From Mariniflexile maritimum (GTDB lineage Bacteria > Bacteroidota > Bacteroidia > Flavobacteriales > Flavobacteriaceae): a DNA stretch of 64,000 bases. The stretch's first letter is position 1, and every line of letters starts with the position of its first letter. Under the pieces are notes generated by a model, which had not been told where the DNA came from, ran no database searches, and saw only the letters and a program-made list of their open reading frames with translations. The stretch is taken from positions 310,001-374,000 of the forward strand of contig NZ_WRPN01000003.1 of NCBI RefSeq assembly GCF_009746565.1, given 5' to 3'. This document shows, piece by piece, positions 18,703 to 23,941 of this stretch. The position numbers and the translations under genes were made by a program.

Positions 18703-19143
18703 CTATACCTTTTTAATCACATTGGTAACGATGCCCCAAATGATAAAATCGTTTTCCTTGGTTATTTTTATAATAGGGTAATTGGGGTTTTCTGGTTGCA
18801 ACCAAACCTCGTTTTTCTCGACTTTCAGGCGTTTTACGGTAAATTCGCCATCTAAAAAGCAAACAGCAATTTTATTGTTTGCGGGTTCCAAACTTCGGTC
18901 TATTACCAGCAAATCGCTATCGTCAAGTCCGGCACCAATCATCGATTGGCCGCTCACGCGTGCAAAAAAAGTGGCTTCTTTATTTTTTATAAGCTCTTTA
19001 TCTAACGATAGGCGTTGTTCTTTAAAGTCCTCGGCGGGCGATGGAAATCCTGCTGAAATGCCCGTATCGAAAAAAAGCGCGCCCAAACCGCCAATTTCTT
19101 CGGGAGCAAAAAAAGTTAAGGTTTTGGATTGATGTAACAGCAT
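18703..19143 (-). CDS. umuD: UmuD-like S24 family peptidase
   Basis: A LexA/UmuD-type protein that cleaves itself and then activates a Y-family polymerase for error-prone lesion bypass. At 146 residues it has the UmuD length, with no DNA-binding domain. The cleavage site is Ala31-Gly32 (SAGFPSPAED). The catalytic dyad is Ser67 (SGQSMIGAG) and Lys104 (FTVKRL). It lies 59 bases downstream of umuC, the reverse of the E. coli umuDC order. A 7/8 match to the -7 box (TATCTTTA on the minus strand, 19160-19167) suggests it may also have its own promoter. Confidence 0.92.
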   Translation of the reverse strand: MLLHQSKTLTFFAPEEIGGLGALFFDTGISAGFPSPAEDFKEQRLSLDKELIKNKEATFFARVSGQSMIGAGLDDSDLLVIDRSLEPANNKIAVCFLDGEFTVKRLKVEKNEVWLQPENPNYPIIKITKENDFIIWGIVTNVIKKV

Positions 19144-19159
19144 GTCTTTAATTTTAGGG

Positions 19160-19167
19160 TAAAGATA
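19160..19167 (-). promoter_or_regulatory. Candidate -7 box for umuD
   Basis: TATCTTTA on the minus strand is one base off TAnnTTTG and lies 16 bases before the umuD ATG, within the umuC-umuD gap. Confidence 0.3.
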
Positions 19168-19202
19168 CTATTTAAAATGCTCTCTTTGGATGCGTAAAAT
19201 TT

Positions 19203-20459
19203 TCATTTTACCTTAATAATATCGTTAATATTGGTGGTGTAACGTGGCGATAAACGTTCCTGCCGCATTTTCCAAGTACGTTTTAAATCTTGGTTTGCCA
19301 ATTTCACTTTATTGTCGGCATATTTGGCATTCAGCCCGTCAATGGCTTTCATTAGTGGTTTGTGCTTGGGGTTTTCGGCTTCAAACAGGTGCAATTGATG
19401 GTTGTGCGTGGGCACCAAACCCATCACGATAACGCCTGCACGCTTATAGTTTATGCCTTCCTTAAAAATAGTGCTTACTGCCTGTACCGCTTGTTGACTG
19501 ATAATTAAACTGGAATCGGTTGGAAACGGCAAACTTATCAATTTACTGGCACGGTGTTGCTCCATCGCCGTTTTATGCCTATCGCTGCTTAATATTACAT
19601 AAATAAGATGGCAACTAGACCCTTGTTTTCGTAATTTTTCGGCGCAACTGGTGGCGAATGTGGAGATACGTTCCTTAATGTTTTCAAGGTCTGAAAACGT
19701 ATATTCAAAACTGCGTGTGGTAGCAATGGCTTGCTTGGTTTTTACATCGTCCAATTGCAATGTTGGAATGCCTTCCAAATCTTTTTTGAGTTTCCACTCG
19801 ACTATTGAGAAGTTTTTGCGCACCCATTCATCCGGAAGTTGCACAAAATCGAATGCTGTATGGCAATTTTTAGCTTTCAACCGTTTGGATAGCGCGCGAC
19901 CAACGCCCCAAACATCTTCAATTTTAATCCATTTTAAGGCCTTTATGCGTTTTTCTTCGGAATCAATTACATATACGCCATGGGTTTGCACCGGGAATTT
20001 ACGCGCAATTTTATTGGCTACCTTGCTTAACGCTTTAGTTGGTGCGATACCTACACAGGTTGGAATGCCCGTCCATTTTAAGACTCGGGTTCTTATTTGG
20101 TTGCCGTAATCGTTAAAATTGCAGTTCCCAAAACCTTTAAATTGCAGAAAACCTTCATCGATGCTGTACACCTCCACATTGGGTGTAAACTGTTGCAAAA
20201 TGGCCATTACCCTACTGCTCATATCGCCATACAAAGGATAATTGGATGAAAACACCAGGATATTATTGGCTTTACAAAAGGCTTCCCATTTAAAAATAGG
20301 CGCTCCCATGGGTAAACCCAAAGCCTTCGCCTCATCGCTACGCGAAATAACACAGCCGTCGTTATTACTTAATATAGCAATGGGTTTATGGCGTAAATTA
20401 GGGTTGAAAGTGCGCTCGCAAGACGCATAAAAATTGTTACAATCTACTAAAGCGTACAT
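19203..20459 (-). CDS. umuC: UmuC-like Y-family DNA polymerase
   Basis: A translesion polymerase catalytic subunit (Pol V type), 418 residues against about 422 in E. coli. The N-terminal motif ALVDCNNFYASCERTFNP carries the first metal-binding Asp. VYSIDEGFLQF carries the central Asp-Glu pair. The helix-hairpin-helix region (about 170-200, VWGVGRALSKRLKA) and the little-finger domain follow. UmuD follows downstream in the same direction, which supports a functional pair. The region upstream contains a short dyad (20481-20491) that could be a damage-response operator. Confidence 0.95.
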   Translation of the reverse strand: MYALVDCNNFYASCERTFNPNLRHKPIAILSNNDGCVISRSDEAKALGLPMGAPIFKWEAFCKANNILVFSSNYPLYGDMSSRVMAILQQFTPNVEVYSIDEGFLQFKGFGNCNFNDYGNQIRTRVLKWTGIPTCVGIAPTKALSKVANKIARKFPVQTHGVYVIDSEEKRIKALKWIKIEDVWGVGRALSKRLKAKNCHTAFDFVQLPDEWVRKNFSIVEWKLKKDLEGIPTLQLDDVKTKQAIATTRSFEYTFSDLENIKERISTFATSCAEKLRKQGSSCHLIYVILSSDRHKTAMEQHRASKLISLPFPTDSSLIISQQAVQAVSTIFKEGINYKRAGVIVMGLVPTHNHQLHLFEAENPKHKPLMKAIDGLNAKYADNKVKLANQDLKRTWKMRQERLSPRYTTNINDIIKVK

Positions 20460-20526: not shown

Positions 20527-22020
20527 TTATTTTATAACGAAATCGTAGGCTATTTTTAATTTTTTAACAACACTTTCAATTTCTTCTGCGTTTAAATGGC
20601 CAAATCCAAAACGGATGCAACAGTGGTTTTTATCTTGGTACAGAATGGTTTTGGGAAGAAACACATCCTGTTTTTGGGCCTCGTCCGCTAATTTAACCAA
20701 CGCTATTTTAGGCTCGAAACGCAACCATAAAGCCAATCCTCCAGATGGTTTTTCCCAGACCAAATTTTGTTTAAAATTTTCGGCAAGGCACTGGCATAAA
20801 TAATCGCGCCGCTGCTTGTAAACAAGCGTGTTTTTTTTGATGAGTCGATGCATTTCACCTTCATAAATAAGTTCAGAAAGCATTTGTTCCTGAATTAAAT
20901 CGCCTTGTTTATCGAGAATCTGCAAATAATTTTTAGCCTCGGAAATCAAGTTTTCCGGTGCTACCACAAAGCCCGTTTGAAAGCTCGGGAAAAGCGATTG
21001 CCCCAGTTTCCCTAAATAAATAATCATGCCATGCGCATCCGAACTTGCCATGGGCAACATGGCAGAGCCATCAAACTGGAAATCGTAATCATAATCATCT
21101 TCAATAATAGCAAATTGATAATCTTCTGCAAGCTGCATCAACTTTAAACGGCGTTCCACGCTCAGGGTTTTCGTTGTTGGGTAATGCCTGTGGGCACACA
21201 CATATACGCAACGAATGTCGTGTTTTGAAAAGTGTTTCCTAATAAATTCTACATCAATCCCATGGTCGTCAACAGGAATGGTTTTTATGGTTGCACCAAC
21301 TTGCTGAAAAATCATGTTTGCCGCATAATTGCTTAAATTTCCAATTAAGACAGTATCGTTGGGCTGTAATAGCAATTGGGAAACGATATACAAACTCATC
21401 TCCGTACTGCGCGTGCTCATTAAATTGTGGGGTTTAATGTGAAAACCACGCGTGGCATTTAAGTAATTACATAATTGCATCTCGAATGTCGAATGGGACG
21501 ACAATGTATTTTGATTCCATTTTGAGATTAAGGTTTTACGTTTCATGGAAGCACTGTACCAACGTGAAAACTGATGTGTGGGATGCAGCCTTAAATCGGG
21601 TTGGCCATCATTAATACTGAATTTCTTTTGGGTCACTTCGGTTGTTGATGCCAAATGAAACGACGGCTGAAAAGGGAAGCCCGTGTTTTTTGGATAGGCG
21701 TTTACTTGATCAATGTGGTACGAAGTAGCCTTTATGGTTGCTGTTTTTTGTTCGGGCACCAATACAAAAGTGCCTTTGTTCGGAATGATTTCAACCCACC
21801 CTTGCGAAGCCAATTCATCGTAAATAGCAACAGCGGTGTTTCTGTGGATGTTGAATAATTTACTAAACGTGCGCGTACCGGGTAAGGGCATGCCTTCGGT
21901 TAAATAACTGCGCTGTATGGCGTTGATAATTTGTTGTGCCACCTGAATATAAACGGCCGTGTTACCCGATTTTTCAAAATGGATCAACTGTTTTAAAAGA
22001 GGATTAACCGGACTATTCAT
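20527..22020 (-). CDS. MocR-type regulator (GntR HTH + aminotransferase fold), PLP lysine apparently replaced
   Basis: A 497-residue fusion of a GntR winged helix (about 18-88, with GMPLPGTRTFSKLFNIHRNTAVAIYDEL) and a fold-type-I aminotransferase-like domain (about 130-490). MocR proteins usually sense PLP or PLP-bound amines. The IEDDYDYDF motif that holds PLP is present. The lysine segment, usually YLGTFSKxLFP, reads YLGKLGQSLFP (335-345), so Gln341 sits where the Schiff-base lysine belongs; Lys338 is three positions early. It is divergent from a TonB receptor, with 79 bases between them that hold repeated GGAC/GTCC half-sites. It probably controls that receptor and itself (inference). Confidence 0.88.
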   Translation of the reverse strand: MNSPVNPLLKQLIHFEKSGNTAVYIQVAQQIINAIQRSYLTEGMPLPGTRTFSKLFNIHRNTAVAIYDELASQGWVEIIPNKGTFVLVPEQKTATIKATSYHIDQVNAYPKNTGFPFQPSFHLASTTEVTQKKFSINDGQPDLRLHPTHQFSRWYSASMKRKTLISKWNQNTLSSHSTFEMQLCNYLNATRGFHIKPHNLMSTRSTEMSLYIVSQLLLQPNDTVLIGNLSNYAANMIFQQVGATIKTIPVDDHGIDVEFIRKHFSKHDIRCVYVCAHRHYPTTKTLSVERRLKLMQLAEDYQFAIIEDDYDYDFQFDGSAMLPMASSDAHGMIIYLGKLGQSLFPSFQTGFVVAPENLISEAKNYLQILDKQGDLIQEQMLSELIYEGEMHRLIKKNTLVYKQRRDYLCQCLAENFKQNLVWEKPSGGLALWLRFEPKIALVKLADEAQKQDVFLPKTILYQDKNHCCIRFGFGHLNAEEIESVVKKLKIAYDFVIK

Positions 22021-22052
22021 TGTTTTGAAACTGGACTATTTTACTCGTCCAG
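22008..22052. promoter_or_regulatory. Candidate MocR operator in the divergent promoter
   Basis: Two direct copies of C(C/T)GGACTATT (22008-22017 and 22031-22040) are spaced 23 bp start to start, about two helical turns. An inverted half-site GTCCAG (22047-22052) pairs with CTGGAC (22031-22036). Direct repeats at helical spacing are a known pattern for MocR regulators. The first copy overlaps codons 2-5 of the regulator, consistent with autoregulation. Confidence 0.5.
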
Positions 22053-22060
22053 AAAGTTAC

Positions 22061-22068
22061 GAATTTTG
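22061..22068 (+). promoter_or_regulatory. Candidate -7 box for the TonB receptor
   Basis: GAATTTTG is one base off TAnnTTTG, 31 bases before the receptor start and just downstream of the GTCCAG half-site, so a bound regulator would sit over the -33 region. Confidence 0.35.
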
Positions 22069-22099: not shown

Positions 22100-23941
22100 A
22101 TGACACGCATTTATTGCCTAGGCTTATTAATTTTATGTTCGCTACCGGGAACTGCCCAAAACAATCAGCATAAAGAACAAGATACCACCAAACTTGGCGA
22201 GGTCGTTATTACTTCAACCCGTATTAACTTACCGTTTCCGGAAAACTCGCGCACCATTTCAATCATTTCTTCAGAAAGCATAAAAAATAGTGCCGCCAGC
22301 ACCTTAACAGATGTGTTGCAGCAAGTTGCGGGCATCGATGTAAAACGCCAAGGTACGGGTGGTACGCAGGCCGATTTGTACATTCGGGGTGGCAGTTTCG
22401 ACCAAACCCTCATCCTTATTGACGGCATTAAAATGGACGATGCGCAAACAGGCCACCATACCTTAAACGCCACTTTGCCCCTCGATGTTATTGACCGTGT
22501 TGAAATTATAAAAGGCCCTGCTGCACGCGTTTTCGGCCAAAATGCCTTTACGGGCGCAATCAATATCGTTACGAAAAAAAAACTGGATAACGGCGGATCT
22601 GCAGCCATCGAAACAGGATCGTACAAACAGTTAAACGCTTCGGTTACGGTAACTTCCAATTTGGAAAACGCGTCGCACCTAATTCATGTGAACCGCAATA
22701 CTTCGGATGGATACCGTTACAATACCGACTACGACAACCAAAATTATTTCATAAAAAGCATCTTCAACAAAAAAAGAAAAGCTATTGAAATGATTGCCAC
22801 CTTCACCGAACGTAAATTTGGCGCCAATGGGTTTTATGCTATTCCAACGGCCATCAACCAATATGAAGAAACCCAAAATAGCCTGATTGGTTTTTCAACG
22901 GATTTTTCAACCGAAAAACTAAGCATCAAACCACGCATTTACTGGAAACGCAACCAAGACGCGTACCTGTATGTTCGCCAAAACCCCGCTGCTTTCAGGA
23001 ATTTCCATATTAGCGATAAAATGGGCACCGAGGTAAATGCTTCCTACACATCCAGCGCGGGCATTACCGGTTTTGGCATCGATATATCGAAAACTTATTT
23101 AAGAAGCGATGGCACCACGGGCGGTTTGGGCAACAGGAATCGATTTATGGCGAATCTATTTTTAGAGCATTTGTTTAAACTAGCCAACGATAAACTGGAC
23201 ATAACCCCCGGTGTTGCCGTAACCTATTTTTCCGATTTTAAGTTTCACGCATTCCCGGGCATTGATATGGGCTACCGCTTAAACCCCAATTTAAAAGTGT
23301 ACGGAAACATGGGCTATACTTACAGAATTCCCACTTATACCGATTTGTATTATAACGGCCCAAGCAATATTGGAAACGAAAACCTAAACCCTGAAGAGGC
23401 CCTTTCGGAAGAGATTGGATTAAAATATTTTTCGCCTACTTTTTCAATTTCCGCAGCACTTTTCAATAGGGATGCCAGCAAGTTAATAGATTTTATAAAA
23501 GAAAATGAAGCCGATAAATGGCAACCCGTTAACATTAGGGACTTAAACACCAAAGGTCTGGAAATTAATAGCTCGTACACTTTTAAACTAACTCATTTCA
23601 ACCAAAGCATTTCATTAGGCTACACCTATTTAGACGACCAGGTAAAATCCTTAAACGTGAATTTTTCAAAATATGCCATTAACTCGTTAAAGCACCAAAT
23701 AACCGGCCGTTTTAGTTCCCAATTAATTAAAAACTTGAGCCAAAACATAGTTTACAAACACGCCGAAAGAACAACGGGCACCAGCTATAACGTGTGGGAT
23801 GCCTCGGTAGCATTAACCTTAAAACCATTTGAAATAACCTTAATGGCAAACAATATTTTTAATGCCGACTACAGTGAAGCCAATTTAATACCCATGCCAA
23901 AGGGCAACCTGCTTTTTGGCCTACGGTATAATTTTAACTAA
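22100..23941 (+). CDS. BtuB-sized TonB-dependent receptor
   Basis: A 613-residue outer-membrane receptor starting MTRIYCLGLL with a signal peptide (about 1-19, cut near GTAQ). The frame is open further upstream, but only this ATG places the signal peptide at the N-terminus. It has a TonB-box-like segment (KLGEVVITSTR), a plug domain (about 40-150, with IRGGSFDQTLILIDGIKMDD and DRVEIIKGPAARVFGQNAF) and a barrel ending in FGLRYNFN. It lacks the carboxypeptidase-like domain and has almost the length of E. coli BtuB, which suits a small ligand such as a cofactor or metal chelate. The divergent MocR regulator hints at a vitamin or amine-related substrate. No B12 riboswitch fits in the 79-base upstream gap. 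Confidence 0.9.
   Translation: MTRIYCLGLLILCSLPGTAQNNQHKEQDTTKLGEVVITSTRINLPFPENSRTISIISSESIKNSAASTLTDVLQQVAGIDVKRQGTGGTQADLYIRGGSFDQTLILIDGIKMDDAQTGHHTLNATLPLDVIDRVEIIKGPAARVFGQNAFTGAINIVTKKKLDNGGSAAIETGSYKQLNASVTVTSNLENASHLIHVNRNTSDGYRYNTDYDNQNYFIKSIFNKKRKAIEMIATFTERKFGANGFYAIPTAINQYEETQNSLIGFSTDFSTEKLSIKPRIYWKRNQDAYLYVRQNPAAFRNFHISDKMGTEVNASYTSSAGITGFGIDISKTYLRSDGTTGGLGNRNRFMANLFLEHLFKLANDKLDITPGVAVTYFSDFKFHAFPGIDMGYRLNPNLKVYGNMGYTYRIPTYTDLYYNGPSNIGNENLNPEEALSEEIGLKYFSPTFSISAALFNRDASKLIDFIKENEADKWQPVNIRDLNTKGLEINSSYTFKLTHFNQSISLGYTYLDDQVKSLNVNFSKYAINSLKHQITGRFSSQLIKNLSQNIVYKHAERTTGTSYNVWDASVALTLKPFEITLMANNIFNADYSEANLIPMPKGNLLFGLRYNFN

What the first reader, a model, noticed from the sequence alone, without database searches (positions are those of the whole stretch)
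20527..22068. MocR-type regulator without the canonical PLP lysine, divergent from a vitamin-sized TonB receptor
The Schiff-base segment reads YLGKLGQSLFP, placing Gln341 where the lysine of YLGTFSKxLFP should be. The intergenic region holds two direct GGACTATT half-sites 23 bp apart and an inverted GTCCAG. A regulator that cannot bind PLP covalently may sense a different ligand, perhaps the receptor's substrate.
Basis: partly seen in the sequence, partly recalled or inferred. Interest (0 to 1): 0.5.

Follow-up and report, generated by a model that had tools for sequence, protein, structure and literature searches.

The report
Lysine-less MocR guarding a biotin receptor
A gene switch that has lost its vitamin-B6 anchoring residue sits next to, and probably controls, the outer-membrane receptor that bacteria unable to make biotin seem to use to import it, which gives a testable case of a sensor whose old cofactor pocket may have been reused.

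Summary
The MocR at 20527-22020(-) has Gln341 where MocR and aminotransferase proteins have the PLP lysine, and Gln348 where the phosphate-binding arginine belongs. It is a clade trait: 38 of 38 orthologues in a family sample have Gln341, 67 of 69 in a second, partly overlapping set.
The regulator is divergent from the same TonB receptor in 37 of 37 fetched orthologues and 69 of 69 named ones. Among 299 family genomes the receptor is nearly exclusive with biotin synthase: bioB in 12 of 104 with it, 157 of 195 without; thiC shows no link. Lysine-type relatives face a bioF-D-B-A operon and match BioL, a published MocR repressor of biotin synthesis whose K340A mutant loses repression (PMC12915131). 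An operator model built from Gln-type loci finds 8 of 11 of them.
Best reading: a BioL-like, PLP-lysine-less, autoregulated repressor of a receptor for biotin or a precursor. Repression, substrate and ligand are inferred, not shown. New variant of a known kind.

The parts
20527..22020 (-). MocR-type regulator, 497 aa: GntR winged helix (24-86) plus aminotransferase-fold domain; BioL-like, PLP lysine replaced
   Evidence: ORF; PF00392; AF2 model and GabR/PdxR fold matches; tree
20998..21000 (-). codon of Gln341, at the position of the PLP Schiff-base lysine (GabR K312, BioL K340)
   Evidence: alignments; 38 of 38 Gln; 67 of 69 Gln, 1 Lys, 1 Arg
20977..20979 (-). codon of Gln348, at the position of the arginine seven residues after the lysine (PLP phosphate arginine by family knowledge)
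   Evidence: 0 of 69 Gln-clade sequences have Arg (Q64 E4 H1); 10 of 11 lysine-type relatives have Arg
21871..21873 (-). codon of Arg50, equivalent of BioL R50 in the DNA-binding domain
   Evidence: Arg in 80 of 80 aligned relatives; R50A loses repression in BioL (PMC12915131, section 2.2)
22007..22059 (.). operator: two direct CYGGACTA half-sites 23 bp apart plus an inverted half-site
   Evidence: alignment; genome scan; named loci
22010..22017 (+). half-site 1 GGACTATT, inside codons 2-4 of the regulator
22033..22040 (+). half-site 2 GGACTATT
22047..22052 (-). half-site 3, inverted (reads GTCCAG on the + strand)
22064..22068 (+). conserved TTTTG, probable -7 element of the receptor promoter (Bacteroidetes-type promoter, recalled from knowledge)
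   Evidence: each of the five positions is identical in 36-38 of 38 sequences
22100..23941 (+). TonB-dependent receptor, 613 aa, predicted outer-membrane receptor for biotin or a biotin precursor
   Evidence: PF07715 and PF00593; nearly exclusive with bioB; followed by bioB or bioF in some relatives

Best explanation
The two genes are a biotin-uptake unit. The receptor (22100-23941) brings biotin, or a precursor such as desthiobiotin, across the outer membrane of a cell that cannot make biotin. The regulator is a dedicated, autoregulated repressor related to BioL, the MocR repressor of biotin synthesis. It binds a three-part operator that reaches into its own first codons and lies just upstream of the receptor promoter, so binding should silence both genes. 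In the Gln clade the PLP lysine and the phosphate-binding arginine are lost, so the internal aldimine that BioL seems to need cannot form. I infer that the signal is now a carboxylate ligand held without a covalent bond in the old cofactor pocket, most likely biotin or desthiobiotin as co-repressor. Shown by sequence: residue losses, divergon, operator, an operator shared with BioL-type loci, near exclusivity with biotin synthase. Inferred: DNA binding and repression, transport substrate, ligand. The confidence given is for the biotin-uptake repressor reading; for the ligand step alone I put about 0.38.
For: Receptor and bioB: bioB in 12 of 104 receptor genomes against 157 of 195 others, odds ratio 0.03, p 2.3e-32 (lists); control thiC 18 of 104 against 40 of 195, p 0.54. 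Of 63 same-genus pairs 6 differ, and 2 of these 6 swap one gene for the other. Of 38 Gln-type genomes 9 have bioB and 2 have bioA; in 8 of the 9 bioB is the next gene after the receptor. In 69 named Gln-clade loci the next gene is bioB in 5 and bioF-like in 4. Lysine-type regulators face unknown-bioF-D-B-A in 7 of 11 named loci and in L042. The operator model from Gln-type loci finds 69 of 69 Gln-type and 8 of 11 lysine-type named loci. Published BioL is a MocR repressor that needs K340 and R50 (PMC12915131). Arg470, aligned with the aminotransferase carboxylate arginine, is kept in 80 of 80 (1x0m alignment).
Against: 66 of 104 receptor genomes lack the Gln-type regulator, though one of them, G241, has an Arg-type relative in its place; 20 of 20 other such loci examined show no MocR and no operator at the receptor. 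So the receptor does not need it. No inner-membrane carrier was found: BioY in 0 of 41 genomes. The receptor's best NCBIfam match is the vitamin B12 receptor, well under cut-off. One Gln-clade member has Lys and one Arg. In the named genomes with intact bioB, bioB is beside the receptor in 4 of 7 only. Four receptor-bioF loci are hard to explain, one (L190) in a genome without bioB. In 44 of 69 named loci the next gene is some other one, 27 of these on the other strand. The exclusivity test counts related genomes as independent.
Confidence: 0.75

Rival explanations
1. The regulator still holds PLP or PMP without a covalent bond and senses an amine such as KAPA (8-amino-7-oxononanoate) by forming an external aldimine, as BioL is said to sense that compound. 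This differs from the best reading in the sensing step only.
For: The aspartate for the pyridine nitrogen is kept (D308 68 of 69, D309 69 of 69); the fold is intact. Four loci have a bioF-like gene (KAPA synthase) right after the receptor. Lysine-less fold-type-I proteins that use PMP exist (recalled).
Against: The phosphate arginine is lost in 69 of 69 and Tyr310 is Phe in 26 of 69. bioA is missing in 36 of 38 and bioB in 29 of 38 Gln-type genomes, so the pathway is broken there; bioF itself was not searched genome-wide. In BioL K340A alone derepresses (PMC12915131).
Confidence: 0.18
2. The receptor imports something other than biotin, for instance cobalamin, which its nearest named family suggests.
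For: TIGR01779 (B12 receptor) is the best NCBIfam match at 154.7 bits, cut-off 599.7.
Against: No cobalamin riboswitch in the window at Rfam's gathering score; near exclusivity with bioB and no link with thiC; bioB or bioF follows it in some loci.
Confidence: 0.08
3. The regulator senses nothing: it is an autorepressor that only limits receptor dosage, its aminotransferase domain kept as a dimer scaffold. This too differs in the sensing step only.
For: PLP site residues are lost; the Gln-type regulator is absent from 66 of 104 receptor genomes.
Against: Gln341 is kept in 67 of 69 and Arg278 in 69 of 69, and the protein is 65-82% identical in the other 37 family genomes, which a mere scaffold would hardly need.
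Confidence: 0.15
4. It is a vitamin B6 (PdxR-like) system.
For: PdxR is the best NCBIfam model, 266.8 bits, under its cut-off of 320.
Against: pdxJ is present in 294 of 299 family genomes, so the receptor does not replace B6 synthesis; linked genes are biotin genes.
Confidence: 0.03

Closest known systems
BioL (MocR repressor of the BioE biotin pathway, Elizabethkingia and Chryseobacterium; PMC12915131)
   Same: MocR architecture; neighbouring clade; R50 kept; operator recognised by the same model at 8 of 11 lysine-type loci; biotin-related targets
   Different: Gln in place of the essential K340; phosphate arginine lost; target by position is a TonB receptor, not bioEFD/bioBA; found mostly in genomes without bioB
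GabR and PdxR (MocR regulators of known structure)
   Same: Two-domain fold; best Foldseek matches; two direct repeats plus an inverted half-site (operator layout recalled)
   Different: About 20% identity; both bind PLP through the lysine, which is Gln here
BtuB-type TonB receptors
   Same: Plug and barrel domains, similar size
   Different: Score far under the BtuB cut-off, no cobalamin riboswitch found, link to biotin genes
BirA, BioR and BioQ biotin regulators (recalled)
   Same: Control of biotin genes
   Different: Different protein families; BirA senses biotinyl-AMP

Membership tests
MocR subfamily of GntR | N-terminal GntR winged helix | tested here: met
   PF00392 E 9.7e-9
MocR subfamily of GntR | C-terminal fold-type-I aminotransferase domain | tested here: met
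   GabR and PdxR alignments and fold matches; Pfam PF00155 itself not reached at E 0.001
MocR subfamily of GntR | PLP Schiff-base lysine (said to be kept across all clusters of 1331 sequences, PMC6677901, passages) | tested here: not met
   Gln341
BioL | common descent | tested here: met
   Gln clade, lysine-type BioL group and the L043/L047 branch join in one starred group against 7 other MocRs; the order of the three is not resolved and the Gln clade is not inside the BioL group (quick tree). No E. meningoseptica sequence was at hand
BioL | K340 for PLP | tested here: not met
   Gln in the window; Lys at that position in 9 of 11 lysine-type relatives
BioL | R50 in the DNA-binding domain | tested here: met
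   80 of 80
BioL | faces or controls the bioE-F-D-B-A genes | tested here: not met
   window genome has no bioB or bioA at the thresholds used; the target by position is the receptor
BioL | answers to KAPA | not testable with these tools
   needs a binding assay
PdxR (NF052282) | score over the curated cut-off | tested here: not met
   266.8 against 320 bits
TonB-dependent receptors | plug and beta-barrel domains | tested here: met
   PF07715 and PF00593
BtuB (TIGR01779) | score over the curated cut-off | tested here: not met
   154.7 against 599.7 bits
biotin outer-membrane receptor | transport of biotin or a precursor | not testable with these tools
   only genomic association

The most novel reading that the evidence does not exclude
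An aminotransferase-type domain that has shed PLP has become a direct, non-covalent sensor of biotin or desthiobiotin and controls a TonB receptor for that vitamin that I found named nowhere: a MocR whose relative reads a biotin intermediate through PLP now reads the imported end product.
Probability: 0.38. Interest if true: 0.78.

Novelty: new variant of a known kind. Interest (0 to 1): 0.62.

Why it matters
If true, it names an outer-membrane route for biotin in Flavobacteriaceae: 104 of 299 sampled genomes carry the receptor, 92 of them without biotin synthase. It also supplies a natural series (lysine-type BioL at synthesis genes, lysine-type at a receptor, Gln-type at a receptor) in which the loss of a cofactor from a sensor can be followed, with two natural tip changes to Lys and to Arg. 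My ten library searches listed no paper that I could see to join BioL or biotin with a TonB receptor in this way; the library lacks most subscription journals, and the original BioL paper (PMC12704756) is not held and was not read.

Tried and rejected
Operator scan with the wrong spacer (17 instead of 16 bases) gave 24 hits against 35 in its reversed control, that is background; it was replaced by a profile model.

Second targets of the operator inside the Gln-type genomes: none convincing. In G122 bioB lies on another contig (C69) and no listed hit is there.

Cupin_8 and DUF6646 downstream as parts of the unit: rejected, because bioB or other genes come between them and the receptor in some genomes, and many named loci do not have them within the stretch seen.

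Lys338 as the PLP lysine: rejected by L154 and by the alignments.

Vitamin B6 and B12 readings: see rivals.

Geometry of the pocket: the AF2 model's coordinates are not readable here, so no distances were measured.

Full report
What is there. The ORF at 20527-22020(-) encodes 497 aa with a GntR winged helix and a domain that aligns with aminotransferases, GabR and PdxR. The segment is YLGKLGQSLFPSFQTG. Gln341 sits on the lysine of PdxR and GabR, and Gln348 on the arginine seven residues on, which by family knowledge holds the PLP phosphate. Pfam's aminotransferase model is not reached at E 0.001 for the window protein, while lysine-type relatives score 84.5 (L114) and 68.3 (L042) bits and two intermediates 43.1 (L043) and 21.8 (L047). 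The AF2 model (44 sequences, mean pLDDT 82.5, pTM 0.70) keeps the fold: Foldseek's best matches are GabR and PdxR, and VIA-align gives Z 36.0 for GabR 4n0b (rmsd 8.7 over 432 residues) and 39.6 for an aminotransferase (rmsd 2.8 over 375). In its genome the other two matches cover only the DNA-binding part.

It is a clade. Of 299 family genomes, 69 have a match at E 1e-40 or better and 38 of these, window included, form a group at 65% identity or more. All 38 have Gln at this position. A scan of named genomes gave the best 80 of 302 confirmed loci: 69 are closer to the window, 11 to the lysine-type L042. At position 341 the 69 have Q67, K1 (Lutibacter citreus L154), R1 (Polaribacter L174); the 11 have K9, H1, R1. 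At 348 the 69 have Q64, E4, H1; the 11 have R10, K1. A quick maximum-likelihood tree of 53 chosen rows puts the Gln proteins in one clade with starred support, L154 and L174 as tip changes inside it. The lysine-type BioL group (support 89) and a two-row branch (L043 Lys, L047 Arg) are its neighbours; the order of the three is not resolved; 7 other MocRs stand apart.

Its partner. In 37 of 37 fetched family orthologues, the window, and 69 of 69 named loci the regulator is divergent from a related TonB receptor. The gene after the receptor is biotin synthase bioB in 8 of the 9 Gln-type family genomes that have bioB (for G135 by coordinates), G122 being the exception. In the 69 named loci it is bioB in 5, bioF-like in 4, Cupin_8 in 12, another gene on the same strand in 17, on the other strand in 27, and a contig end in 4. 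bioB passes its NCBIfam cut-off in those tested; two of the four bioF-like genes were run and score under the bioF cut-off, in the range of the BioF of the lysine-type operons or a little below.

Biotin. The receptor is found at E 1e-100 in 104 of 299 genomes (more distant receptors are not counted), bioB in 169. Both occur in 12, receptor only in 92, bioB only in 157, neither in 38 (odds ratio 0.03, p 2.3e-32). The control thiC shows no link: 18 of 104 against 40 of 195, p 0.54. pdxJ is present in 294 of 299. Of 63 same-genus pairs 57 agree in both genes; of the 6 others, two swap bioB for the receptor. These genomes are related, so the p value overstates independence. For the regulator itself: bioB in 9 of 38 against 160 of 261, p 1.6e-5. 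bioA is present in 2 of the 38, so 7 of the 9 with bioB have it without bioA, the pattern that lets bacteria live on desthiobiotin (PMC9561691, passages; its abstract also says that most Flavobacteriia in its own genome set have all four late genes). In named genomes (49 of 80 loci given, 48 searched), 7 of 38 Gln-clade genomes have intact bioB, beside the receptor in 4 of these 7, and one has a broken bioB; the lysine-type L120, which faces a receptor, has none.

The relatives name the system. Seven of the 11 lysine-type named loci (Sphingobacterium, Chryseobacterium, one Flavobacterium) and L042 face a five-gene operon: a small protein (206, 207 and 211 aa in the three checked), bioF, bioD, bioB, bioA (by NCBIfam for L042, all but bioD also for L114, by BLAST for the rest). 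PMC12915131 (abstract, passages, section 2.2 and part 1 of the reference list read) describes BioL: a MocR repressor of bioEFD and bioBA in Elizabethkingia and Chryseobacterium, said to sense 8-amino-7-oxononanoate; R50A and K340A lose repression; BirA there lacks a DNA-binding domain; 'TonB' does not occur in it. The first gene of my operons has no Pfam hit, stands where bioE stands, and in L042 has Glu at residue 26, the number of the active-site residue reported for BioE. I therefore take these regulators as BioL. I had no E. meningoseptica sequence to test this directly.

The operator. AACCGGACTAT ... CTGGACTA ... GTCCGGAAAGTT is nearly fixed in the 38 loci. A sequence-only model from 31 of them finds the divergon in 38 of 38 Gln-type genomes at E 7.4e-11 or better; all other listed hits in them have E 0.005 or worse, apart from a duplicated contig end in G255. 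It also finds G241 (L047, E 7.7e-7) and G142 (L042, E 5e-4) at the matching place. In named loci it finds 69 of 69 Gln-type (some from genomes used to build it) and 8 of 11 lysine-type at E 1.2e-4 or better, two of the 8 over about half the model only; L122, L123 and L126 are missed. In 20 of the 66 receptor genomes without the Gln-type regulator I looked at the receptor locus: no MocR in the stretch, no operator, one weak off-site hit at E 0.04; L225 and L240 keep the window's neighbours with the regulator missing. Half-site 1 lies in codons 2-4 of the regulator and half-site 3 ends 11 bases before a conserved TTTTG, so binding should block both genes.

How it may work. Arg470, on the carboxylate arginine of aminotransferases, is kept in 80 of 80, and Arg278 is fixed in 69 of 69 Gln-type and absent from the 11 others. 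A ligand with a carboxylate arm, as in KAPA, desthiobiotin and biotin, would fit. Most of these genomes lack bioA and bioB, so I favour an imported vitamer, biotin or desthiobiotin, as the signal; bioF was not searched genome-wide and four loci carry a bioF-like gene, so KAPA is not excluded. This step is inference. PLP without a covalent bond is the main rival.

Limits. No experiment on this clade is known to me. The inner-membrane step is unknown: BioY in 0 of 41 genomes, control positive in 9 of 14. The regulator is dispensable, since 66 of 104 receptor genomes lack the Gln type; one of these, G241, has an Arg-type relative there. Papers other than those named were seen only as search listings, or as passages (PMC6593275, PMC6677901, PMC6168606, PMC9123166). 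PMC6168606 lists a TonB-dependent receptor in its table of genes changed in a Riemerella bioF mutant; I did not check whether it is this one.

Noticed in passing
L042 (G142) and G142:C1:2278602-2280341: One genome has both a lysine-type BioL facing bioF-D-B-A and a 63%-identical receptor elsewhere, the latter without regulator or operator in the stretch seen (L238).
   Followed up: partly
L041 (G255:C1:1-1519): The start of a long contig repeats the operator and a stop-riddled copy of the regulator; probably an overlapping, error-rich contig end rather than a second gene.
   Followed up: no
L127, L130, L155, L190 (receptor followed by a bioF-like gene): Four Flavobacterium loci have a bioF-like gene after the receptor; one genome (L190) has no bioB and another (L130) only a broken bioB. 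What the enzyme does there is unexplained.
   Followed up: partly
L122, L126 (Myroides): BioL-type regulators with His or Lys at the PLP position that face neither biotin genes nor a receptor, without an operator match; bioB is present elsewhere in both genomes.
   Followed up: partly
41 genomes: No BioY in any of them, so the inner-membrane carrier for biotin in these auxotrophs is unknown.
   Followed up: no
38 genomes listed: 38 of 299 family genomes have neither bioB nor this receptor at the thresholds used; one of them, G022 (L043), has a more distant receptor beside a relative of the regulator.
   Followed up: partly
window 18703-20459: S24/LexA-like and UmuC-like genes lie beside the regulator here and in many relatives; two loci keep these neighbours where the regulator is missing (L225, L240).
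   Followed up: no
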